In this document: positions 19,260 through 61,130 of the stretch, piece by piece
How the letters are laid out: each line of letters begins with the position of its first letter
Numbering within the stretch: the stretch's first letter is position 1
Source: an uncultured bacterium
GTDB taxonomy: Bacteria > Cyanobacteriota > Vampirovibrionia > Gastranaerophilales > Gastranaerophilaceae
Length of the DNA: 64,000 bases
Direction of reading: 5' to 3'
NCBI GenBank assembly: GCA_902761735.1
Contig: CACWLL010000001.1
Span: 124,001-188,000, forward strand
Translations under genes and position numbers: made by a program
The notes under the pieces: generated by a model
Database searches by the model: none
The model's input: only the letters and a program-made list of their open reading frames with translations
What the model was told of the DNA's origin: nothing

Positions 19260-20018
19260 ATGGGTTTATCAGCTTCTCAAGCAAGACTATTCTACCTTAC
19301 CGCACAATTAAACAACCTGTCTTTAAAAGGGCAGCAAGTCAATGATGCAAAAACAAGATTAGCACTCGATACTCAAGCAATTCAGGAAAAGTACATTAAA
19401 GCTCTCAACACAAGCCATCTGTTCCTTAATTCAAATATTTTTGCAACAGACGGACAATCAATCCAAAAGGATTATTTAACCTTGGAAAATTTGGGTTCAA
19501 TAGGTATGTATGTTACAAATGGCGCAAACATTCTCGGATATAAATGGGAGCAAGTACCGACAGGTAAAATGGAAAACGTAAAAATGGGTTATGACCAGGA
19601 AACTAAGCAACCTATTTATGCTCAGGTAGAACAATTTGAGTATAAGCTTATTGAAGACAAAGACTTCAAAATTTCATCAAGAGATTTAGAAGAAGGACTT
19701 CGTAATGGAGCTTATACACTTGTAAAACCTACTCAAAGTGATAATACGGAAGCCATAAATATTAACGGACTATTCTACGAAACAATAGGTTTAAGTAACA
19801 GTTCTACAATTACCGATGAAACCGATAGCGATGCTATCAAAAAAGCTGAGGCTGAATACAATAAAGACATGCAAGAAATTCAGATGCAAGATAAAAAATA
19901 CGAAATGGATCAAAAGAAAATTGATACACAATACAATGCTTATATGCAGGAAGAAGAAAGTATCAAAAGTGTTCTTAGCAAAAACGTTGAAAGGTCATAC
20001 AATACTTTCAAGGCTTAA
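19260..20018 (+). CDS. Hypothetical structural protein of the MGLSASQARL type
   Basis: 252 residues, AAAAAGGAT ribosome-binding site. The N-terminal helix (MGLSASQARLFYLTAQLNNL, then QQVNDAKTRLALDTQAIQ) and the C-terminal helix (about 200-252: DMQEIQMQDKKYEMDQKKID.QYNAYMQEEESIKSVLSKNVE) are the recognisable parts. From memory, similar end motifs recur in many proteins of this lineage, with an unproven resemblance to flagellar-hook or rod-type proteins. No signal peptide. No flagellar or type III genes lie in the window. Function unknown. Confidence 0.72.
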   Translation: MGLSASQARLFYLTAQLNNLSLKGQQVNDAKTRLALDTQAIQEKYIKALNTSHLFLNSNIFATDGQSIQKDYLTLENLGSIGMYVTNGANILGYKWEQVPTGKMENVKMGYDQETKQPIYAQVEQFEYKLIEDKDFKISSRDLEEGLRNGAYTLVKPTQSDNTEAININGLFYETIGLSNSSTITDETDSDAIKKAEAEYNKDMQEIQMQDKKYEMDQKKIDTQYNAYMQEEESIKSVLSKNVERSYNTFKA

Positions 20019-23321: not shown

Positions 23322-25769
23322 TTAGCCAATTGCAGGTTCTCTACTTATTAAATTAACAGCATTGTCAATATTTTGTATAAGTTCTGTATAATAAGAATAA
23401 TCTTTAGTTGAATGAGCCAATTCGACACCCGTTTGAGCCACGAGTTTCATTTGACGTAACAAATCAATTGTCATCATTATACCCTTAAACAAGGTCCCCT
23501 CATCTTTATATTTCCGTTTATCCGCACTATAATAAATTTTACTCCAGTTCTGCGTAGAATCCTCATTTTGCGAGTTCATTTCCGCCCATTTATAAATGTT
23601 GTTTGTAAGTTCATTATTTATTTCTATTTGCCTGAACTTTCGGTCATTTTTTGTCGATAAATCGTTATATTTATTTAATGTATTATTTAATTCTTTTACA
23701 TATTTCTCCAGTGTTGAATTTGACCAATCATAACCTTTTGGTTTATCGCCAAAAACTTTTGTAAATTGACCATCTTTTTTAGGCTCAACATTTGCTAAAG
23801 CCGCAACTGCTCCTGCCAATTCGGCTGCTGACATCTTTTCAAAAGCTTTTGAACTTACCATTTCAATAACCGGAATTTGTTCATACCCGTTAAGATTTGA
23901 TATTAAAATTCCTTTATCGGTTAAATTATTTTCAGTCGTCAGATAGTCAAAATTCTTTAGCATATTTATTTTATTAGTAAATAAATTTCGCAAATTTTCT
24001 TTATTTCTCAAGGCTGTTTGAGGGTTTTTATCATATGTATAAAAAGATTTATCAAATAACAATTCAAGCATATTATCGTCTTGAAGTTCATTATAATATT
24101 TTGTTATAAAGGAATAATCCGGTCTTAATGCACTTTTTAACCTGTTTGGGCTTGAATGAACCAACATATCAAATGCGGAATGTTCATCCTCATTTAAACT
24201 GAGTGTATAGCAATATCCTTTAGTATCAATTCCACGTCTTCCTGCTCTACCTGCCATTTGATGAAACTCATTTGCGGTAATTCTTCTTTTATTATCAGGT
24301 CCGTCGGGATTTGAAGAAGGTTTCCTTGATGCTGTTATAACCGTTGTTCTCGTTGGCATATTTATTCCTGCAGACAAAGTCTCAGTTGCAATAACTACCT
24401 TTACCAATTTATTTTGGAACAGTTCTTCAACCAACTCTTTTTGTGTTGGCAAAAGTCCTGCATTATGTACGGCATAACCCTTTAATAATGCTTTCATATC
24501 CAGAGTTTCTCCCAGATATTTACCTTCTTCGTCGAATTTCTCAACGGTATCCATTATTAATTCTTTTTCGTTATCCGTCGTAAGTTTCGGTCCGTATTTT
24601 GTCAAATATTCCAATATATCCTTGCTGTTTCGCTTGTCGAACACAAAAAATATTGCAGGCAGCTTATTTTCATCTTTTAACATTCTTACGACATCAGTAT
24701 AGGCAAAAGCCGGAATGATACCTTTCTTATCAGCCATATTAGATAATTTATCTATCTTTTCATTAAATTTAGACTTCTTTTTTGATTTTTCAGGCTTTGT
24801 TATATCATCAACATTTATATTTTCAAACTCCAACGGAACATGTCGGTTTGAAATTGGCACATCAATTAGAACGGTATGAACAGGCAAATATTCATTTGCT
24901 TGATATTTTGCGAGCTTTTTGTTATTCTCTGATACTTCCTTGGCAGACTCTTTTGATATTTCCGGAGTCGGTTTCGTTACTACGACAGGGTCCTGCTCTC
25001 CTAATGCATCAGTTATAGGCTCGCCGGATACAATTTCAGGCTGTCCTTGATTTCTTATCCCTGACATCCAATCTGCAATATCACGGTTGTTTCCTATTGT
25101 TGCAGACAATGATAATAACTGAGTTTCAGGCTCGGAAAGAAATATTGATTGTTCCCAAATACCGCCTCTATCAACATCACCAAGATAATGCAATTCATCA
25201 AATATAACGGTTTTTAAATCCTTAAGAAGCTCATTTTCTTTACCGAAGTATTTGCCAAAAACCATATTACGATAGACTTCTGTTGTCATTATAACAATCG
25301 GTGCATTTATATTTTCTTTGATATCACCTGTTAAAATCCCGACATTTTCTTTCCCGTATATACGTTGGAAATCTCTGTATTTTTCATTACTCAATGCTTT
25401 TAACGGAGTTGTATAAAATGTTTTTTTGTTATCTCGTAAGTTTTTTCCGATTGCATAATGTGCAATTGCCGTTTTGCCTGTTCCGGTAGGTGCGGTTACA
25501 AGAACATCATTATCCAACAAAATATTTTGAGCTGCGGCTATCTGAAAGACATCAGGTTTTGCACTTACAGGCAGTTTGAAGTAATTAGCATCAACAGTTC
25601 TTTCAAAATCAGCCTTGCCTTTAAAATTTATATACGAATATGCAAAACGAGGCAACTCCTGTTTATTGTGTGGTGACAGGTTATACGACTTATTGTACAA
25701 TTGCTTATCCGACTGCGTTAAATCTGTTTTATTAAAATATTTATATGTTTGTATTGCAGAAATTTTCAT
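23322..25769 (-). CDS. Ski2-like DEAD/DEAH-box helicase with N-terminal leader
   Basis: 815 residues. Helicase motifs: I APTGTGKT (93-100), Ia TPLKALSNEK, II DELH (191-194), III SAT (222-224), V TETLSAGINMPTRT, VI QMAGRAGRRG (504-513), the set of the Ski2/Mtr4/HelY branch of superfamily 2, usually RNA or DNA unwinding. A charged, weakly conserved segment (about 240-350) separates motif III from the second RecA domain. The first 50 residues are polar and end in INFKG (47-51), a motif seen in four other proteins here. It begins 11 nt after the L,D-transpeptidase gene and is cotranscribed with it. Confidence 0.88.
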   Translation of the reverse strand: MKISAIQTYKYFNKTDLTQSDKQLYNKSYNLSPHNKQELPRFAYSYINFKGKADFERTVDANYFKLPVSAKPDVFQIAAAQNILLDNDVLVTAPTGTGKTAIAHYAIGKNLRDNKKTFYTTPLKALSNEKYRDFQRIYGKENVGILTGDIKENINAPIVIMTTEVYRNMVFGKYFGKENELLKDLKTVIFDELHYLGDVDRGGIWEQSIFLSEPETQLLSLSATIGNNRDIADWMSGIRNQGQPEIVSGEPITDALGEQDPVVVTKPTPEISKESAKEVSENNKKLAKYQANEYLPVHTVLIDVPISNRHVPLEFENINVDDITKPEKSKKKSKFNEKIDKLSNMADKKGIIPAFAYTDVVRMLKDENKLPAIFFVFDKRNSKDILEYLTKYGPKLTTDNEKELIMDTVEKFDEEGKYLGETLDMKALLKGYAVHNAGLLPTQKELVEELFQNKLVKVVIATETLSAGINMPTRTTVITASRKPSSNPDGPDNKRRITANEFHQMAGRAGRRGIDTKGYCYTLSLNEDEHSAFDMLVHSSPNRLKSALRPDYSFITKYYNELQDDNMLELLFDKSFYTYDKNPQTALRNKENLRNLFTNKINMLKNFDYLTTENNLTDKGILISNLNGYEQIPVIEMVSSKAFEKMSAAELAGAVAALANVEPKKDGQFTKVFGDKPKGYDWSNSTLEKYVKELNNTLNKYNDLSTKNDRKFRQIEINNELTNNIYKWAEMNSQNEDSTQNWSKIYYSADKRKYKDEGTLFKGIMMTIDLLRQMKLVAQTGVELAHSTKDYSYYTELIQNIDNAVNLISREPAIG

Positions 25770-39484: not shown

Positions 39485-39991
39485 ATGGCAATAGACAGAA
39501 TTGGAAACAATCCGGTATCATTTAGAGGCTTCTACAATGATGCTAAAGGTGCATATAACTTATCACTTGAATTGGTTGGCAAACCGGAATTAGAAAGAAA
39601 ATTTATTCAAAATATCGTAGAACCTCTTTCACATACTAAACTATATCACGTTTTTGTACACGGAGACAGTGCCAGTATAATCAACAATGAAGGCAAAGGT
39701 ATTATGAATGTAATTCTGCCGGGCTCAAAGGCTGACCATACATTAGGCGTTGTATACGATTGTGATTGTGCCTGCAGAATGGGTTTAAGAAGAAATTCAG
39801 CAGTAGAACCTACGGAAAATTTCAGAAAAGACGGCTATCTTTTGCACATTATTGAAACCGCAAAAAATATAGTAATGGATAAAGAAGCAATAGCCAAGAG
39901 TAATGCCCTGGAATCATACTCAAAAATTGCAACCGAAACAGTAGAAGAAAAAGCCGGACGATTTGAGAAAATATTCAAATATAACGTATAA
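39485..39991 (+). CDS. Hypothetical protein with N-terminal VSFRG motif
   Basis: 168 residues, AAGGAG ribosome-binding site. After a short start, VSFRG (11-15) matches the leader motif of four larger proteins here. The body is a compact mixed fold with LYHVFVHGDSASIINNEG and VVYDCDCACRMGLRRNS (Cys-Asp-Cys-Ala-Cys, a possible metal site or disulfide source), ending in a helical tail. No signal peptide or membrane helix. Family not recognised. Divergent from the SpoIID-murJ operon. Confidence 0.7.
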   Translation: MAIDRIGNNPVSFRGFYNDAKGAYNLSLELVGKPELERKFIQNIVEPLSHTKLYHVFVHGDSASIINNEGKGIMNVILPGSKADHTLGVVYDCDCACRMGLRRNSAVEPTENFRKDGYLLHIIETAKNIVMDKEAIAKSNALESYSKIATETVEEKAGRFEKIFKYNV

Positions 39992-40054: not shown

Positions 40055-41428
40055 TTATTTGGCTTCCAAAGCAGTTCCGTCTTTTGTATCTTTTAACAAA
40101 ATACCGCACTCATCAAGAGTAATCCTTATTGCATCGGCGACAGCCCAATTTTTTTCAGCTCTTGCCGCCTTTCGGTATTCAATGAGTTCATCTATTGTAG
40201 AAAACTTTTTATCTAACTTCTCGGAAACTTTTTCCAATGCATTATTAATTTCCGCTTCGGATAACTCAGGTTTATCAAACGTAAAACCTAAAGTTGTTGC
40301 CAATTTATACAAAATAGTATAAGAGCCTTCAATTTCCTTATTCGATTTATTTGTTAAATCAAATAATACAGCCAACGCCTTTGATGTATTTAAATCGTCA
40401 TCCATAGCATCGACAAATTGCTTGTATTCATCGGTTGACTTTATATCAAGACTCTCATCTATTTCTGTTCTTTTTGCATTTAACATACGCTTTACACCGG
40501 CCTGCGCAGAAGATAAAGCTTCATCGGAAAATTCAACCGGCATTCTGTAATGATTTGTAAGTATAAAAAACCTGATGGTATTTGAATCATACTTTTTCAA
40601 CAAATCATCTATGGTCAAGAAATTACCAAGAGATTTCGACATCTTCTCTTTATTTATTGTCACAAAGCCATTGTGCAGCCAATAATTTACGAACTTGCAT
40701 CCGTTTGCACATTCTGACTGTGCGATTTCATTTTCGTGATGAGGAAATATTAAATCCGCACCTCCGGCGTGAATATCAATAGTTTTTCCCAAGTATTTTC
40801 TGCTCATCGCAGAACACTCTATATGCCACCCCGGACGACCAACTCCCCACGGAGAGTTGTACCCGAATTTCTCATCCTTTTTCCATAAAGCAAAATCAAG
40901 CGGGTCTTCTTTCTGCTCACCGACTTCAATTCTTGCACCGCTTTCTAATTGGTCAATAGGCTGCTTTGATAAATATCCGTAATTCGGGAATTTTTTAACC
41001 CTAAAATATACGTCACCATTAGCCTCATAGGCATAACCTTTTTCTATTAGCGTTTTAACTATTGAAATCATCTCACCTAAAGTTTTTGTTGCAAAAGGCT
41101 CAATATCAGGTTTTAAAGTATTTAATGCCTTCATAGAATTTGAAAACTGTTTATACCAATATTGAGAAACTTCCTCAGGAGTTTTATTTTCTTTTTCGGC
41201 CTTTTTAAGAATTTTATCGTCAACATCCGTGACATTACGGCAATAGGTAACATCATAACCTTTAAATTTTAAATATCTGTACAGCACATCCCAAGTAATA
41301 TAGCACCTTGCGTGCCCCAAGTGCGCATAATCATATACCGTAGGTCCGCAAACATACATTTTTACTTTATTATCTTCTATTGGTTTAAACTCTTCTATCT
41401 GATTAGTGTACGAATTGTGTAATTTCAT
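40055..41428 (-). CDS. cysS: Cysteinyl-tRNA synthetase
   Basis: 457 residues, family length. Class I signatures: CGPTVYDYAHLGHAR with HLGH at 36-39, GWHIECSAMS, DIHAGGADLIFPHHENE with zinc ligands, and NKEKMSKSLGNF (KMSKS loop). Charges tRNA-Cys with cysteine. It stands alone between two convergent or divergent genes with its own terminator. Confidence 0.97.
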   Translation of the reverse strand: MKLHNSYTNQIEEFKPIEDNKVKMYVCGPTVYDYAHLGHARCYITWDVLYRYLKFKGYDVTYCRNVTDVDDKILKKAEKENKTPEEVSQYWYKQFSNSMKALNTLKPDIEPFATKTLGEMISIVKTLIEKGYAYEANGDVYFRVKKFPNYGYLSKQPIDQLESGARIEVGEQKEDPLDFALWKKDEKFGYNSPWGVGRPGWHIECSAMSRKYLGKTIDIHAGGADLIFPHHENEIAQSECANGCKFVNYWLHNGFVTINKEKMSKSLGNFLTIDDLLKKYDSNTIRFFILTNHYRMPVEFSDEALSSAQAGVKRMLNAKRTEIDESLDIKSTDEYKQFVDAMDDDLNTSKALAVLFDLTNKSNKEIEGSYTILYKLATTLGFTFDKPELSEAEINNALEKVSEKLDKKFSTIDELIEYRKAARAEKNWAVADAIRITLDECGILLKDTKDGTALEAK

Positions 41429-55549: not shown

Positions 55550-56051
55550 AGCTGTCCTGTTTACGACAGCAAAAGCTCTCTCTATTAAAGAAATTGCAGA
55601 AATTCTTGAAGAAGATGTGGAAAAAACGGAAGAAGCCATGCTAGAATTAATTATGGATTATTCTGCACGTTCGGGAGCTTTGGAAATCGACGACGAAAAC
55701 GGATATATCCTTCAGGTTAAAGAAGAACATATGGATATTGTGGAAAAACTTTGTCCTGTAGAACTAAAACCGGCCGTACTTAAAACTCTTGCCGTTATTG
55801 CTCTAAAAAAATCAATCCGACAAACAGAACTAAAGGAATTAAGAGGCTCAACGGCATACGAGCATGTACAAGAGCTGTTGGATAAAGAGTTAATCAGCAG
55901 AACCAAAGATAAAAACGGACGAAGTTTTAACTTAAAACCTACACCAAAATTTTATGAATATTTCAAAATTAAAGGGGATACAAGATCTTTGGAAAAATTA
56001 TTAGAGGCCGACAAGGAGCTCAAAGATAATGAGAAAGATAATACCGATTAG
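55524..56051 (+). CDS. scpB: Segregation and condensation protein B
   Basis: 175 residues from ATG 55524 (AAGAGG just upstream; a GTG at 55518 overlaps that site). Two winged helices: IEAVLFTTAKALSIKEIAEIL and LAVIALKKSIRQTELKELRGSTAYEHVQELLDKELI. It overlaps scpA by 26 nt and is itself overlapped by the next gene, so all are translationally linked. ScpB dimers bind the ScpA kleisin. Confidence 0.93.
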   Translation: MEQLKARIEAVLFTTAKALSIKEIAEILEEDVEKTEEAMLELIMDYSARSGALEIDDENGYILQVKEEHMDIVEKLCPVELKPAVLKTLAVIALKKSIRQTELKELRGSTAYEHVQELLDKELISRTKDKNGRSFNLKPTPKFYEYFKIKGDTRSLEKLLEADKELKDNEKDNTD

Positions 56052-57381
56052 AATAATATTACTCTCAATAATTCTTTTTGGATTGGTGGTATGTTGGATA
56101 GCATTACCATCTATATTTTTTAAACTTGGAGTTGCCGCATTTAACAAAAAAGATTATGCCGCAGCATATAAACAGTTTTCATATGCAAGAATACTGAATA
56201 AAACCAATACCGATTACAGATATTATTATGTACAAACGCTTGCTAAATTTATGCCTTCAATGAAAATTCAAAAGGAAATGTATGAATTTGCAAATGACGG
56301 GAAAAAGGACAGTGCTCACGTGTTTGCAGGGATACAAGTAAATGTTTGGCGGAACAATGCAATGCAAACTTACGGGTCAAATTACATTGAACAAGCGCCC
56401 TTGGGAGCAGATATTATCCGCTGGAACCCAAAAACATTTCCATTAAAAGTTTATTCGGATTTCAGTGCAAATCCTAATTATCCGGAATATTACAATGACC
56501 AGATAACAAAAGCTTTTGGGCAATGGGCAGGAGCATCAGGATTTATAGCCTTCTCCTTTATAAACAACCCGACGAAAGCAGATATTATTATAAGCTTCAA
56601 ACCCTCTCCGGAATCCGGATGCACAGAAACCGGTTGCAAATATGTAGTAGCGCACACCGAACCTATCATTAAAGGGCGAATCTTAAAACAAATGGTTATT
56701 ACCATATATGATAAAGATGCAACAGGATCATTCTTCTCCGATAAGGAACTATATAATACCGTATTGCACGAAATCGGACATGCTCTGGGTATAATGGGGC
56801 ACAGCTACAGTACTGACGATTTAATGTACATGTCTAACAAAGCAAACCTTATCCCAACATTTATACAGTATAGAAGTGATTTTCAGTACATATCGGTGAA
56901 AGATGTAAGTACACTTAAACTTTTATACAATATCATGCCGACAATTTCTAATACGCCGCTCAGCGAAATAAATGAAAAAAAACTTTTGTACGGGCCTGTT
57001 ATTTTCGGGAATATGAAAATGATTGGGGCAAGAAAAGTTAAAGAAGCAAAAGAATACATCGCTCAAGCACCCAATCTTCCGGGAGGATATATGGATTTAG
57101 GAATTGCCTATGATGATATGGGCAACGTAGAAAAGGCTCTCGAAGCATTTCAAAAAGCTTATAATTTAGCCACTTTAGACAATGACAGATATACAATTTT
57201 ATATAATATAGCAGCAATGTATTTAAACAATAACAATCCTGATTCCGCATTAGGATATGCTAATCAAGCAAAACAAATAAAAGCAACTGACGAAATAGCC
57301 GAACTTATCGGGAACATTGAACACGCTAAAAATGCTAAAACGAAACCTTTCTGGGTTCCAAGAATTGTCCCTAATAACTAA
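56029..57381 (+). CDS. Membrane-anchored matrixin-like (M10-type) zinc metalloprotease with TPR repeats
   Basis: 450 residues. One N-terminal transmembrane segment (8-30), a possible TPR (35-70), a metalloprotease domain (about 100-295) with the zincin motif HEIGHALGIMGH (247-258) and Met-turn LMYMS (Met266), then two or three TPR units (about 345-430). The extended HExxHxxGxxH motif with the Met-turn defines the metzincin fold; matrixin is the closest by appearance. It probably faces the periplasm. Its start overlaps scpB by 23 nt, an odd coupling to the condensin operon. Substrate unknown. Confidence 0.87.
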   Translation: MRKIIPIRIILLSIILFGLVVCWIALPSIFFKLGVAAFNKKDYAAAYKQFSYARILNKTNTDYRYYYVQTLAKFMPSMKIQKEMYEFANDGKKDSAHVFAGIQVNVWRNNAMQTYGSNYIEQAPLGADIIRWNPKTFPLKVYSDFSANPNYPEYYNDQITKAFGQWAGASGFIAFSFINNPTKADIIISFKPSPESGCTETGCKYVVAHTEPIIKGRILKQMVITIYDKDATGSFFSDKELYNTVLHEIGHALGIMGHSYSTDDLMYMSNKANLIPTFIQYRSDFQYISVKDVSTLKLLYNIMPTISNTPLSEINEKKLLYGPVIFGNMKMIGARKVKEAKEYIAQAPNLPGGYMDLGIAYDDMGNVEKALEAFQKAYNLATLDNDRYTILYNIAAMYLNNNNPDSALGYANQAKQIKATDEIAELIGNIEHAKNAKTKPFWVPRIVPNN

Positions 57382-57421: not shown

Positions 57422-59335
57422 TTATTCTATATGAGCAGATTTAAAAGAGTTAATTTGAGTATTTAGAACATTGCTGCTTACCGGCTGAGGTTGAACCTCT
57501 GCCACACCTACAGGTTGAGTTTTCAGTTTTTTATTCTTTTTTGCAGCTTCTTTGGCAGCCATTTGCTCTTCAAGTTTTTTCATTTCAGCGGCCATTTCTG
57601 CTTTTACCTGTTCTATTGTTTTTCCTTCAGCTTTTGCAACTCTTGCTATTCGTTTTTCTTCGTTAGCAGCAGACATACTTGCATTTATTTTTGGCAGGTA
57701 GTAACCGAGGAAAATACCCGAATATGCATAACCGATGAGCTGAGCGATATCAAGACTAACCAATTTCTTCCAGATATCTTTTCTTTCTGCATCAGGTAAA
57801 TTCTTAATTTCTCTAAGCAATTTGCCGTAAGATAGAGCTTTACCGTCTTTTACAACATCAATACCGTTTTTACCAAGAGCTTCAAGTAAGATTTCATCTC
57901 TCGATTTTACTGAAGAAGATTTCATCCAGTTTATAAAGCCTTTACCTGCATCTTTTTGAAGGTTAATTAAATCTTTATTTAAGAGTCGGCTTGCACCTTT
58001 TGTTACAAGAGCGCCCAAGACAAGAAGGTTCAAGAAACCTAAGGAATCTTTTACTGCTGATTCTCTAAGTTCATCTTTATCTCTTGCACACATAAATCTT
58101 GACATAATCGTCATACCGTAAACAAACTTCAACTGATTGATAGTAGGCATCATACCTTTAAACTGAATTTTTGATAAAAATCTGTTACCAAAATCTTTTA
58201 ATTTTTCGCCGGCTGTTTGACTTGCCTTGCTAAGTTCTTTTGCAGCAGATTTTTTATCACCAATCATAATTGTAGAAATAGCACCGGCAGCAAAAACAAC
58301 TGCCATAATAGATTTAAGTATATTAAATTCAGTTGACTTATCTTTCTTTCTGCCCGGAACTCCAGGGAATCCGTCAATACCTGTCTTTTTCTTTGTCAAA
58401 TACATATTAATCGGTTGAACAGACATCCCTATAGCTGCAGCCATTCCCAGACCGGCAACAGAACGTTTGATGTTTAATGATTTCAAACCTTTTAATACAT
58501 CAACATCCTTTAAATCAGCATTATCAGTAAAGCTTTTTAGAACTTTTTCTTTATTAAAAGCTTTAGTAACATTATGGATATTTTCAATCAACGTAGTTAA
58601 AGTATTATCTGCAACAATTTTTTCTCCGTTAAGAACAACGCTTTTTTCGCCGCCTGTTGCTGCTGTGATTAAACGTTTGATATAATCAACATCTTCTGCT
58701 TTAATTGTTTCTTTTGCTTTATTATCCTTAATCAAGTTATATAATCTTTCGACGACTTTTTCTTGAGTATCTTTATTAATATCTACAAGTCCGTTAACGT
58801 TTTCGGTTGCAGTCGGATTATATACCTTTATATTTGAAATAACATCATTCAAATATGATTTTAAAGGATCAGCTTCCGCAGAGTGAACCGCAGTATGCCA
58901 TTTTTCACCTAATATATGTAAAGTATCATTATTTGCAAAAATCTTATGAGCCTTAACTCCATAGGTATTGTTAAGTCCTAAAGCGAGTGCCGCACCTAAA
59001 ACAGTTCCATAAACACCTACTGAAGCATGGTTTGCGGTACCGGTAGATTCTCTTCTGAGAGTTTCCATACCAGTAGGAATACCTCTGTTTTTCATATCAT
59101 AAGCTGTTCTTGGAATGACCATTGACCCAAGGTCAACCAAATTTGCGCCCCAAGCTTGATTTGTATCTAAAAATCTCAAAAATACAGCCGGTGCAGCATA
59201 TAATGCCATTCCTGCATTACCAAATGAAACATCCTGCCTTGAATTATTCTGAGAAATATTTTCAGGGTGCTTATTTATTAGCTTTATCTGCTGTCGTTTT
59301 TGTTCAATTTTTGGGGTTATCTGTTGTACTGTCAT
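57422..59335 (-). CDS. Unknown multi-pass membrane protein, paralogue of the 59349 product
   Basis: 637 residues. N-terminal polar leader ending in VSFGN (36-40), then several hydrophobic segments (about 40-57, 105-123, 292-312, 340-358, 430-450, 550-570) and a charged C-terminal coiled coil (about 575-610, EEKRIARVAKAEGKTIEQVKAE). Motifs shared with the neighbouring gene: LRRES (93-97), QPIN (307-310) in a TKKKTG context, and DELRESAVKD (421-430). Family not recognised. It starts 13 nt after the other gene and is cotranscribed with it. No signal peptide or catalytic motif. Confidence 0.75.
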   Translation of the reverse strand: MTVQQITPKIEQKRQQIKLINKHPENISQNNSRQDVSFGNAGMALYAAPAVFLRFLDTNQAWGANLVDLGSMVIPRTAYDMKNRGIPTGMETLRRESTGTANHASVGVYGTVLGAALALGLNNTYGVKAHKIFANNDTLHILGEKWHTAVHSAEADPLKSYLNDVISNIKVYNPTATENVNGLVDINKDTQEKVVERLYNLIKDNKAKETIKAEDVDYIKRLITAATGGEKSVVLNGEKIVADNTLTTLIENIHNVTKAFNKEKVLKSFTDNADLKDVDVLKGLKSLNIKRSVAGLGMAAAIGMSVQPINMYLTKKKTGIDGFPGVPGRKKDKSTEFNILKSIMAVVFAAGAISTIMIGDKKSAAKELSKASQTAGEKLKDFGNRFLSKIQFKGMMPTINQLKFVYGMTIMSRFMCARDKDELRESAVKDSLGFLNLLVLGALVTKGASRLLNKDLINLQKDAGKGFINWMKSSSVKSRDEILLEALGKNGIDVVKDGKALSYGKLLREIKNLPDAERKDIWKKLVSLDIAQLIGYAYSGIFLGYYLPKINASMSAANEEKRIARVAKAEGKTIEQVKAEMAAEMKKLEEQMAAKEAAKKNKKLKTQPVGVAEVQPQPVSSNVLNTQINSFKSAHIE

Positions 59336-59348
59336 AATCTACTTTCCT

Positions 59349-61130
59349 TTACGAATTAAAAAATGCTCCAAAAGCGGTTGATTTCTTGTCAATGAGGTTC
59401 ATACCAAACCCGTTATCGGACGCTTGCGTCGTGGACGGTGACGTACCCGCGGCGGCGCCCTTCATTGATGCGCCGGTACCGCCGGACGTACTCGGCGTCT
59501 GATTTCCGGATTGATTTGAGCCTGCCGCTAATGCAGCTTCATGGGCAAGTCTTGCTTTTCTTGCCTGCTCCTTCCTATTCGTTTGGATTCTGTTATAGAA
59601 CGGAATAAATGCACCAAGAACAGCCAAAGAGAACGTTAAGTTGCCTAACTGGCATACTGAACGCAAGTTTGCTGCTTTCTTTGATGTTAATTCGTCCGTT
59701 GATTTTAGTGCTGTATGTTTAGTCCAATGCCAGAATTTTTCTATTAAATTAGCGTTTTCCTTCAATGGAGTTAATTTATTAGTTAATTTAATATCAGGAT
59801 TAAATTTCTCTATCATAGTTGCAATTCCCTTAGCTGCGTAATCACCTAAGAAATAGAAACTTGCAAATGTAGCTAAATCCCTGACGGTAGATTCTCTCAG
59901 GTCATTAAAATCTTCCGAAGCGCCCATTCTGCTCGCAAATGTCGCAGTTGAAACAATTCTTGCCTGATCCATCGATGGGAAGAATTTCTTAAATTCCAAC
60001 ATTTGCATAGATGGCATCTTCATCATTGATAATAAAGACAAACCTAACATAGAACCTATAGAAATGAATTTTTGTTTTAAAAGTTTGTGTTTTTCGTCTT
60101 GCGATAATACACGTTCTTCTTCATCATTGTAAATTGGAGCACCTTTTCTTCCGCCGGCTGTCTTATGAGTAATCCATCTGTTAATCGGCTGAGCAGAAAT
60201 GGCAAGAGGCAGAATTACTGCAAGTCCGCCAAGGCTCTTCCATCTTACGAGTTTTTTAGCTTTTTCTATATATTTACCAAAATCATCAGCTGATTCAATA
60301 CCTGCATGTTTAGCATCATGGAGGACTTCTACCGTATTCTTCATTAATGAATCCAAGCTGTTACTAAAATATGAATTTTTAGAATTGTTAGTTGTAAATT
60401 TAATATTTTCTGAAATCTTAGTTTTTTCAACTAATTTATTAATTGCAGCCTTCAATGCCTCTCCGTCAAGTTTTTCTGCATCTGCAATTTTTCCGAGATT
60501 TTCAAATATTTTGTCTATTTCAGCCTTATTTTCAGGTGTTGCATTATAAATTTCAGCAAAAGATTTATCTATAATATCACCATCAGCACCCTTTAAATCT
60601 AAGAACATATTCTTTAGCATTTCAGAATATTTTTCTGCACCGGTACCTGTATAATAGCTGTTTATTGTTCTTAAAGTTTCATTATCAGCCCAATTTTTAA
60701 CAAGATTTGATTTGTTACCCATGATAGGATTATTCAGCAGCTTAGCTGCACCAATAACAAATACTCCCGGCAATATGCAATTAATAAACAACCCGGAACT
60801 TTCACGTCTGAGAGCCTCAAATCCTGCCAAAAAGTTCAATTTCCTTTTTTGATTACCGTTTTTATCCAAAACAGGATTACCTGCATCATCAGTAACTTTT
60901 GATGCAGCAACGGTTTCAATAACCGTTCTCGGACCGATTGCGGTTAATAAATCCAACACCGTGACATTTACCATAGGTTCGGCTTCACACCTCTGCATTC
61001 CCTTTATTAAGAGGTTTCCAACAGCTTCCAAGCCTGTAAAAGATGGGGTGCTGTTAGTTTTTTTATCCCTAATGACTGTCGGGGTGTATTGTTTTTTGTC
61101 TACTTTTTCTACACTAACTTTTGTAATCAT
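59349..61130 (-). CDS. Unknown multi-pass membrane protein, paralogue of the 57422 product
   Basis: 593 residues. The leader ends in PSFTG (29-33); hydrophobic segments lie at about 112-132, 300-320, 355-372, 418-435 and 480-500. Shared motifs with its neighbour: LRRES (107-111), QPINRWITHK (314-323), and NDLRESTVRD (409-418). The C-terminal Gly/Ser/Thr-rich tail (about 535-575) is encoded by a strikingly GC-rich patch (59411-59510, 66% G+C by my count). Expressed from an AT-rich 355-bp gap. Function unknown. Confidence 0.75.
   Translation of the reverse strand: MITKVSVEKVDKKQYTPTVIRDKKTNSTPSFTGLEAVGNLLIKGMQRCEAEPMVNVTVLDLLTAIGPRTVIETVAASKVTDDAGNPVLDKNGNQKRKLNFLAGFEALRRESSGLFINCILPGVFVIGAAKLLNNPIMGNKSNLVKNWADNETLRTINSYYTGTGAEKYSEMLKNMFLDLKGADGDIIDKSFAEIYNATPENKAEIDKIFENLGKIADAEKLDGEALKAAINKLVEKTKISENIKFTTNNSKNSYFSNSLDSLMKNTVEVLHDAKHAGIESADDFGKYIEKAKKLVRWKSLGGLAVILPLAISAQPINRWITHKTAGGRKGAPIYNDEEERVLSQDEKHKLLKQKFISIGSMLGLSLLSMMKMPSMQMLEFKKFFPSMDQARIVSTATFASRMGASEDFNDLRESTVRDLATFASFYFLGDYAAKGIATMIEKFNPDIKLTNKLTPLKENANLIEKFWHWTKHTALKSTDELTSKKAANLRSVCQLGNLTFSLAVLGAFIPFYNRIQTNRKEQARKARLAHEAALAAGSNQSGNQTPSTSGGTGASMKGAAAGTSPSTTQASDNGFGMNLIDKKSTAFGAFFNS

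What the first reader, a model, noticed from the sequence alone, without database searches (positions are those of the whole stretch)
57422..61130. Operon of two paralogous multi-pass membrane proteins of unknown family
The two products share LRRES, QPIN and DLRES-[TA]-V-[RK]-D at similar positions and spacing, plus matching hydrophobic segments, but I recognise no known family. They are 13 nt apart and have unlike, low-complexity C-termini (coiled coil versus Gly/Ser/Thr tail). A duplicated pair that diverged at the ends suggests a heteromeric membrane complex.
Basis: partly seen in the sequence, partly recalled or inferred. Interest (0 to 1): 0.55.

Follow-up and report, generated by a model that had tools for sequence, protein, structure and literature searches.

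The report
Paired membrane proteins with shared tag
Two neighbouring genes of an uncultured gut bacterium (a non-photosynthetic cousin of the cyanobacteria) make related helical, probably membrane-embedded proteins of an undescribed family, and both begin with a short tag that also sits on unrelated enzymes of the same bacteria, so they may belong to an unknown protein-sorting scheme.

Summary
In detail: window 59349-61130 (-) and 57422-59335 (-) encode old paralogues (profile-profile E 2.5e-47), 13 nt apart, of no family in Pfam, NCBIfam or the PDB, and without a fold match. The family spans Gastranaerophilales; distant, sometimes split relatives occur elsewhere in the class. Of 143 same-family genomes 121 have both (113 adjacent), 10 only the 593-aa type, none only the 637-aa type, 12 neither: a usual functional pair, not an obligate heteromer. 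Hydrophobic segments are real but marginal. New here: both proteins start with a bipartite, probably disordered N-terminus, 'M-x-[IV], polar linker, x-F-x-[GN]', with conserved ends and a variable linker. The same anatomy is on 14 of 14 orthologues of an unrelated DEAD-box helicase, whose untagged paralogue sits in the same genome. Tag-like N-termini exceed shuffles clearly in two of three sampled Gastranaerophilales genomes and weakly in the third, not in three genomes of the class without the family; one held-out set showed no excess. What the tag and the pair do is inferred, not shown.

The parts
59349..61130 (-). O593, first gene of the pair, 593 aa, helical, 4-6 hydrophobic segments, Gly/Ser/Thr-rich tail
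57422..59335 (-). O637, second gene of the pair, 637 aa, helical, 3-6 hydrophobic segments, charged coiled-coil-like tail
59336..59348 (-). 13-nt gap with GGAAAG ribosome-binding-like stretch; gap -44 to 79 nt, median 13, in 51 loci
61032..61130 (-). N-terminal tag of O593, residues 1-33: M1, I2, F31 invariant in 53 of 53, G33 nearly so; pLDDT under 50 for residues 1-31
59216..59335 (-). N-terminal tag of O637, residues 1-40: F38 in 96% of 53; FxG in 44 of 53, here FGN; mostly pLDDT under 50
60306..60683 (-). O593 residues 150-275: confident helical region between second and third hydrophobic segments, probably non-membrane
   Evidence: inference
58511..58930 (-). O637 residues 136-275: confident helical region with short strands between hydrophobic segments, probably non-membrane
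   Evidence: inference
60180..60191 (-). QPIN of O593 (Q314, N317 invariant)
58406..58417 (-). QPIN of O637 (Q307, P308, N310 invariant)
59877..59933 (-). O593 residues 400-418, SR...DLRESTVRD charged block at the start of a long hydrophobic helix
58046..58102 (-). O637 residues 412-430, SR...DELRESAVKD charged block at the start of a long hydrophobic helix
23322..25769 (-). Unrelated DEAD/DSHCT helicase, 815 aa, with the same kind of N-terminal tag (residues about 1-51)
39485..39991 (+). 168-aa protein without Pfam match with a short form of the tag (VSFRG at 11)

Best explanation
The two genes encode members of an undescribed, class-restricted family of helical membrane proteins with a conserved polar core (PRT, RRE, QPxN, SR..LRExxV[RK]D). 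An old duplication gave two subunits that are normally made together from one mRNA and probably work in one inner-membrane assembly, with the 593-aa protein as the part that can stand alone and the 637-aa protein as its usual partner (inferred). Both carry an N-terminal bipartite short linear motif, M-x-[IV], disordered polar linker, x-F-x-[GN], which I read as a docking or sorting tag: it would be bound by a common, still unknown partner that gathers tagged proteins, membrane-bound and soluble (a helicase among them), at one place in the cell. Shown: paralogy, co-occurrence, gene order, end-conserved and linker-variable N-termini in three families. Inferred: membrane insertion, one mRNA, heteromer, what the core does (transport or channel is the first guess), and that the tag is read by a receptor.
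For: Paralogy. Pairing: 121 of 143 same-family genomes have both, 113 of the 121 adjacent, 8 keep both unlinked. Both clades predate the split of families f1, f6 and f7. Hydrophobic segments in every member, none in soluble controls. Tag: column conservation high at both ends and low between: O593 0.72 / 0.35 / 0.67, O637 0.58 / 0.20 / 0.61, helicase 0.69 / 0.31 / 0.57; low pLDDT there; helicase core motif in 14 of 14 orthologues against a shuffled mean of 0.16 of 14, with an untagged paralogue in the same genome that starts at the helicase domain; proteins passing the bipartite rule: G000 15 of 690 vs shuffled mean 3.7 (0 of 100 shuffles as high), G017 9 of 340 vs 1.9 (0 of 100), G044 4 of 203 vs 1.1 (3 of 100), against 0 of 86, 1 of 157 and 0 of 156 in three genomes of the class without the family. 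In split relatives of other families of the class the second half, now its own gene, has F-x-[GN] near its own N-terminus in 4 of 7 cases.
Against: 10 of 131 genomes keep the 593-aa type without the 637-aa type. Hydrophobicity is marginal. The tag rule was drawn up after looking at the three Gastranaerophilales samples, and the G000 and G044 counts include pair members or their relatives; on a set not used for it (531 other proteins of 53 loci, mostly housekeeping neighbours) it gave 4 hits against 3.15 in shuffles; a position-specific matrix from the pair alone showed no excess in G000; an earlier regex gave G044 1 vs 1.0; only 4 of 14 helicases pass the strict rule. Distant relatives in G057's family carry the tag although G057's sample shows no clear excess (3 of 316 vs 1.1, 10 of 100 shuffles as high). 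In split relatives 2 of 7 second halves have only F-x-Y or F-x-S and 1 has no F. Nothing shows what the core does.
Confidence: 0.42

Rival explanations
1. A heteromeric transporter or channel whose disordered N-termini matter only to this family; the F-x-G end is a local cap on the first amphipathic helix, and likeness to other proteins' N-termini is convergence in an A+T-rich, Asn/Lys-rich proteome.
For: F-x-G sits right before the first predicted helix in both models; charged residues in or next to hydrophobic helices are invariant; the matrix scan and the held-out set show no genome-wide excess.
Against: Helicase orthologues show the same end-conserved, linker-variable N-terminus, 14 of 14, on a soluble enzyme type; composition-keeping shuffles are exceeded in G000 and G017.
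Confidence: 0.25
2. The tag is an export signal of the flagellar-type type III apparatus that Gastranaerophilales keep even without a full flagellum, and the pair is exported, perhaps as a translocator-like pair for a foreign or outer membrane.
For: All 152 genomes of the class sample with an O637-type match also have an FHIPEP (FlhA/SctV) gene, against 34 of 88 without it; G000 has FliE, FliF, FliH and FlhA close together; the N-termini are polar and low in Leu, Ala and acidic residues; hydrophobic segments are moderate. Soo et al. 2014 (PMC4040986, passages seen) report that six of nine Gastranaerophilales genomes had only a flagellar gene subset.
Against: The correlation follows ancestry; genomes of f10-f12 and f14 have FHIPEP and no family member. 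The FliE N-terminus of G017 lacks the motif. No secretion genes lie beside the pair; its commonest neighbours are an RsmE-type methyltransferase, a CCA-type nucleotidyltransferase and ATP synthase genes. A helicase and an AAA protease are odd export cargo. The core is better conserved than I would expect of translocators (recalled).
Confidence: 0.13
3. The N-terminus is a processing or degradation signal: a protease cuts after F-x-G, or the motif sets turnover.
For: No call supports it directly; a short motif after a disordered linker is a usual cleavage layout (general knowledge; disorder).
Against: The far N-terminal M-x-[IV] end is conserved too, which a simple cut site does not need.
Confidence: 0.1
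4. The proteins are soluble or peripheral helical bundles, not multi-pass membrane proteins.
For: About a quarter of residues are charged; only about one segment per protein is strongly hydrophobic.
Against: Every one of the 106 family members scanned has at least two moderately hydrophobic 19-residue segments, the soluble controls have none; segment positions are similar in the two paralogues.
Confidence: 0.1

Closest known systems
Membrane-integral pyrophosphatase (M-PPase)
   Same: Top VIA-align rows for both models: Z 5.3, rmsd 5.2 A, 165 residues (4av3_B) for O637; Z 5.3, rmsd 5.5 A, 185 residues (8b23_B) for O593
   Different: Z is at the level the tool calls a common helical arrangement; no sequence match in the PDB profile searches; about half the helices
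Type III secretion translocator pairs (recalled)
   Same: Two neighbouring co-directional genes for proteins with moderate hydrophobic segments, coiled-coil-like parts and disordered N-termini
   Different: No secretion genes beside them; strongly conserved polar core; paralogous to each other
N-terminal sorting or docking tags such as encapsulation peptides of microcompartments (recalled)
   Same: Short tag on unrelated enzymes, present on one paralogue and absent from another
   Different: Here two conserved ends around a disordered linker, and also on membrane proteins; no shell gene was looked for
Sec or Tat signal peptides (recalled)
   Same: N-terminal, often starts M-K
   Different: No hydrophobic core before the motif; polar throughout

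Membership tests
Any Pfam-A or NCBIfam family | Score above the curated cut-off | tested here: not met
   Window proteins: none above cut-off in Pfam or NCBIfam; all 53 members of each family scanned against Pfam: no family matched by more than 3 members at E 0.01, best E 4e-4
Any family with a solved structure | Sequence profile match in the PDB | tested here: not met
   No match up to E 1 for O637; five chance-level hits, best E 0.2, for O593
Membrane-integral pyrophosphatase | Fold of the core | tested here: inconclusive
   Z 5.3 for both models, within the range of chance helical matches
Membrane-integral pyrophosphatase | About 16 transmembrane helices (recalled) | tested here: not met
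   2-5 hydrophobic segments per member and fewer than ten long helices around them
Type III translocator pair | Encoded beside injectisome and chaperone genes (recalled) | tested here: not met
   Recurrent neighbour families in 53 loci are housekeeping genes (names partly by recognition)
Type III translocator pair | Exported through the type III apparatus | not testable with these tools
   Needs an experiment
Obligate heteromeric membrane complex | Both subunits always present together | tested here: not met
   121 both, 10 O593 only, 0 O637 only, 12 neither, of 143 same-family genomes
Obligate heteromeric membrane complex | Physical interface | not tested
   No multimer prediction was on hand
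Sec/Tat exported proteins | N-terminal signal peptide with hydrophobic core | tested here: not met
   N-terminal region polar, first hydrophobic peak centred at residue 47 (O637) or 62 (O593)
Anti-phage defence proteins (PADLOC) | Match to a PADLOC model | tested here: inconclusive
   Only PbeC at E 0.0012, 15.5 bits, over an 83-residue stretch of O593; none for O637

The most novel reading that the evidence does not exclude
Gastranaerophilales, and in part their class, use a private N-terminal address label (M-x-[IV], disordered linker, x-F-x-[GN]) that is not cleaved and that collects membrane proteins such as this pair together with soluble enzymes (an RNA-helicase-like protein, an AAA protease, a starch-synthase-like protein, a hydrolase) at one unknown subcellular site or machine; the pair is its most conserved known membrane member and may be part of that machine.
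Probability: 0.33. Interest if true: 0.82.

Novelty: new variant of a known kind. Interest (0 to 1): 0.55.

Why it matters
The family is conserved over a whole order of common gut bacteria and carries no name in the libraries searched. If the N-terminal label is real, a share of the 'hypothetical' proteins of these mostly uncultured bacteria can be sorted at a glance, and the label is short enough to be tested as a fusion or peptide bait. It would point to cell organisation not known in relatives of cyanobacteria.

Tried and rejected
Internal duplication (LRRES half against LRES half): profile comparison of five segment pairs gave probabilities of 0.1-1.1%; rejected. Known folds: Foldseek against PDB, best E 0.29 (O637) and 0.28 (O593), none under 0.001; viral library, O637 only, best E 0.042; VIA-align rows top out at Z 5.3, and that no family stands out there is no proof of a new fold. 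PHROGs best E 0.038. Operon context as a clue: no partner gene beyond the pair is constant. Promoter and terminator scans found no clear excess over shuffles (17 vs 14.0 and 2 vs 2.3). FliE as a tagged type III substrate: 'GFGG' in G000 but not in G017; dropped.

Tag counts that were weak or negative: any [PVIT]-x-F-x-G near N-termini is too loose: own genome 21 against 14.3, G044 14 against 8.7, G056 2 against 1.8. A matrix built from the pair gave, at score 8, 5 N-terminal hits against 5.6 expected in G000, 3 against 1.0 in G044 and 1 against 1.7 in G056 (the two window pair genes were left out). Regex runs: G000 7 vs 2.1, G017 4 vs 0.5, G044 3 vs 1.05, G056 0 vs 0.22, G057 2 vs 1.4, G062 1 vs 0.26, G071 1 vs 0.97; first pattern G000 9 vs 4.9, G017 7 vs 0.97, G044 2 vs 2.1, G057 3 vs 2.1, G056 0 vs 0.29, G062 1 vs 0.68, G071 2 vs 1.3; second pattern G000 10 vs 4.0, G017 8 vs 0.32, G044 1 vs 1.0, G057 1 vs 0.92, G056 0 vs 0, G062 1 vs 0.68, G071 1 vs 1.3. 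Held-out set: 4 of 531 vs 3.15.

Papers: searches listed nothing on such a family or tag (titles and abstract starts seen; one search showed 20 of 467); only passages of PMC4040986, PMC4451040 and PMC3787301 were read.
Full report
Where it lies. The window is bases 124001-188000 of contig 1 of a 2.0-Mb, 24-contig genome. Its nearest named relatives in the genome collection are MAGs labelled Candidatus Gastranaerophilales, cyanobacterium UBA2855, Melainabacteria or just uncultured bacterium; a few labels (Clostridiaceae, Acinetobacter) look like naming errors. So it is from the order Gastranaerophilales, class Vampirovibrionia (Melainabacteria); this is my reading of those titles.

The pair. 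O593 (59349-61130, -) precedes O637 (57422-59335, -) by 13 nt. They are paralogues (E 3e-15; 100%, E 2.5e-47, 461 columns). In 51 of 53 loci of other genomes both full-length genes are held, in the same order, -44 to 79 nt apart, median 13; the two others are L077, where the 593-type frame is short (284 aa), and L114, where only the 593-type frame passed the length limit and the matched stretch ends at the contig end.

Distribution. Of 57 relatives 53 match O637 and 52 match O593 (some are cross-matches). In a class sample of 240 genomes 143 are of the window's family. Counting profile matches better than E 1e-90 as orthologues, 121 have both, 10 only O593 (G019, G205, G228, G253, G258, G262, G263, G264, G267, G268), none only O637, 12 neither (and the tables). 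Of the 121, 113 have them adjacent; six have them on different contigs and two 28 and 77 kb apart. Two of the 12 without either (G216, G231) belong to genera whose other members have both, so assembly gaps are possible there. Outside the family, 15 of 97 genomes match the O637 profile: one of f6, ten of f9, four of f15. The f9 and f15 matches are weak (E 1e-8 to 1e-14) and come from diverse proteins, some split into two overlapping genes. A third, solitary paralogue clade occurs in many Gastranaerophilales (for instance L153, L154, L157, L161).

Age. In a 43-row tree O637 groups with f6 and f7 sequences (95/97 support) and O593 with others of f6 and f7 (97/93 at the fork with L146, 83/93 at L061; a very long outgroup row sits inside), and the third clade stands apart (100/100). 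The duplication is older than the split of these families. Long branches make the outgroup part unsure.

Anatomy. Both models (53-row alignments; mean pLDDT 80.2 and 73.7) are almost all helical with a low-confidence N-terminus, hydrophobic hairpins, a well-predicted helical region of about 130 residues, then long helices. Invariant columns include PR at 75-76 (O637) and 67-68 (O593), RRE at 94-96 and 108-110, Q and N of QPxN, and charged residues of the SR...LRExxV[RK]D block. They sit in or next to the hydrophobic helices, so a polar core inside a membrane bundle is likely; transport or channel function is a guess from that. The hydrophobic segments are marginal. No known fold was matched.

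The N-terminal tag. In O593 M1, I2 and F31 are invariant in 53 of 53 rows and G33 is in 98%, while residues 6-27 average 0.35 conservation. In O637 F is in 96% and F-x-G in 44 of 53 (of the other nine, most read F-x-N, F-x-S or F-x-A, two have no F there), with linker conservation 0.20. The distance from start to F varies from 10 to 31 and from 9 to 41 residues. The region is rich in Asn, Gln and Pro, poor in Leu and Ala and has pLDDT mostly under 50. Reading other genes of the window showed similar N-termini on a DEAD/DSHCT helicase (23322-25769) and a 168-aa protein (39485-39991). The helicase is the best independent case: 14 orthologues from 14 of 42 genomes searched all have [IVL]-[SNY]-F-[GKTR]-[NGSA] in the first 75 residues (shuffled mean 0.16, most 2 of 14) and 13 have M-[KR]-[IV] near the start, with a poorly conserved linker. 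That pattern was fitted to these 14 by eye, though the F-x-G class came from the pair. A paralogue in the same genome (L115:17253-19547, 36% over 521 residues) starts at the helicase domain without the extension. Other proteins with such an N-terminus include an AAA/M41-type protein (L144:740-3916), a starch-synthase-like protein (L230:16643-19405), an alpha/beta hydrolase (L232:6263-7141), an HNH protein (L131:3298-5325) and a homologous protein present in both G000 and G017 (L206:16586 and L233:8624); not all of these pass the strict rule.

How strong is the tag as a genome-wide feature? With the final rule, hits against shuffled means were: G000 15 of 690 vs 3.7, G017 9 of 340 vs 1.9, G044 4 of 203 vs 1.1, G057 3 of 316 vs 1.1, G062 1 of 157 vs 0.9, G056 0 of 86 vs 0.4, G071 0 of 156 vs 0.6. 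Some hits are plainly not tags (for example window 40058-41428, whose hit lies inside a domain that aligns with an untagged homologue). The rule was made after seeing the first three samples. A held-out set gave 4 of 531 vs 3.15; it is mostly ATP synthase and other housekeeping neighbours, yet it is a negative result. I therefore hold the tag as well supported within the pair and the helicase family, and as probable but unproven as a lineage-wide system.

Type III link. FHIPEP is found in 186 of 240 class genomes, in all 143 of the family (two, G135 and G235, by a weak match only) and in all 152 genomes with an O637-type match; in G000 it lies near FliE, FliF and FliH genes on the same strand. 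Soo et al. 2014 and Di Rienzi et al. 2013 (passages seen) describe incomplete flagellar sets in several of these genomes. Retained export would explain both, but no direct evidence joins tag and export, and f10-f12 and f14 have FHIPEP without the family.

Verdict. A real, old, undescribed gene pair; heteromer likely but not obligate; membrane location likely; function open. The surprising part is the shared N-terminus. Names such as ATP synthase, CCA enzyme and MurJ are from recognition of sequence, not from a call; RsmE-type, helicase, FliE, FliF, FliH and FHIPEP are from Pfam.

Noticed in passing
G000:C2:106732-113014 (L209:6732-13014) and class survey: All 143 genomes of the family keep an FHIPEP (FlhA-type) gene, in G000 near FliE, FliF and FliH; matches fall into two score classes (about 720-735 and 850-890 bits), and several genomes have both, as if a second, reduced flagellar-type export apparatus were kept.
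   Followed up: partly
L115:17253-19547 versus window 23322-25769: Two related DEAD-box helicases in one genome, one with and one without the N-terminal tag extension.
   Followed up: yes
L167, L168, L170, L171, L179, L180 (f9 and f15 genomes): Distant relatives of the pair split into two adjoining or overlapping genes after the third hydrophobic segment; most second genes begin with their own F-x-G-like N-terminus.
   Followed up: partly
L153:6176-7708, L154:5784-7295, L157, L161: A third, solitary paralogue of about 505-535 aa in many Gastranaerophilales, forming its own clade.
   Followed up: partly
window 56029-57381 (+): Convergent neighbour with a matrixin-type metalloprotease domain followed by TPR repeats behind a hydrophobic N-terminus.
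   Followed up: no
window 19260-20018, L126:12313-13434, L218:9870-10199: Recurrent proteins starting MG[LM]xASQxRLL; no Pfam match for the two tested; could be parts or substrates of the flagellar-type apparatus.
   Followed up: no
C-termini of O593 and O637 orthologues: Short recurring C-terminal ends after low-complexity tails, such as A-F-x-x-F-F in O593 and N-x-x-F-L or S-F-x-S-K-Y in O637 types, perhaps further short linear motifs.
   Followed up: no
G251:C6:733-2352: The O637-type match lies in an open frame of 1092 aa, far longer than elsewhere; extension or fusion not examined.
   Followed up: no
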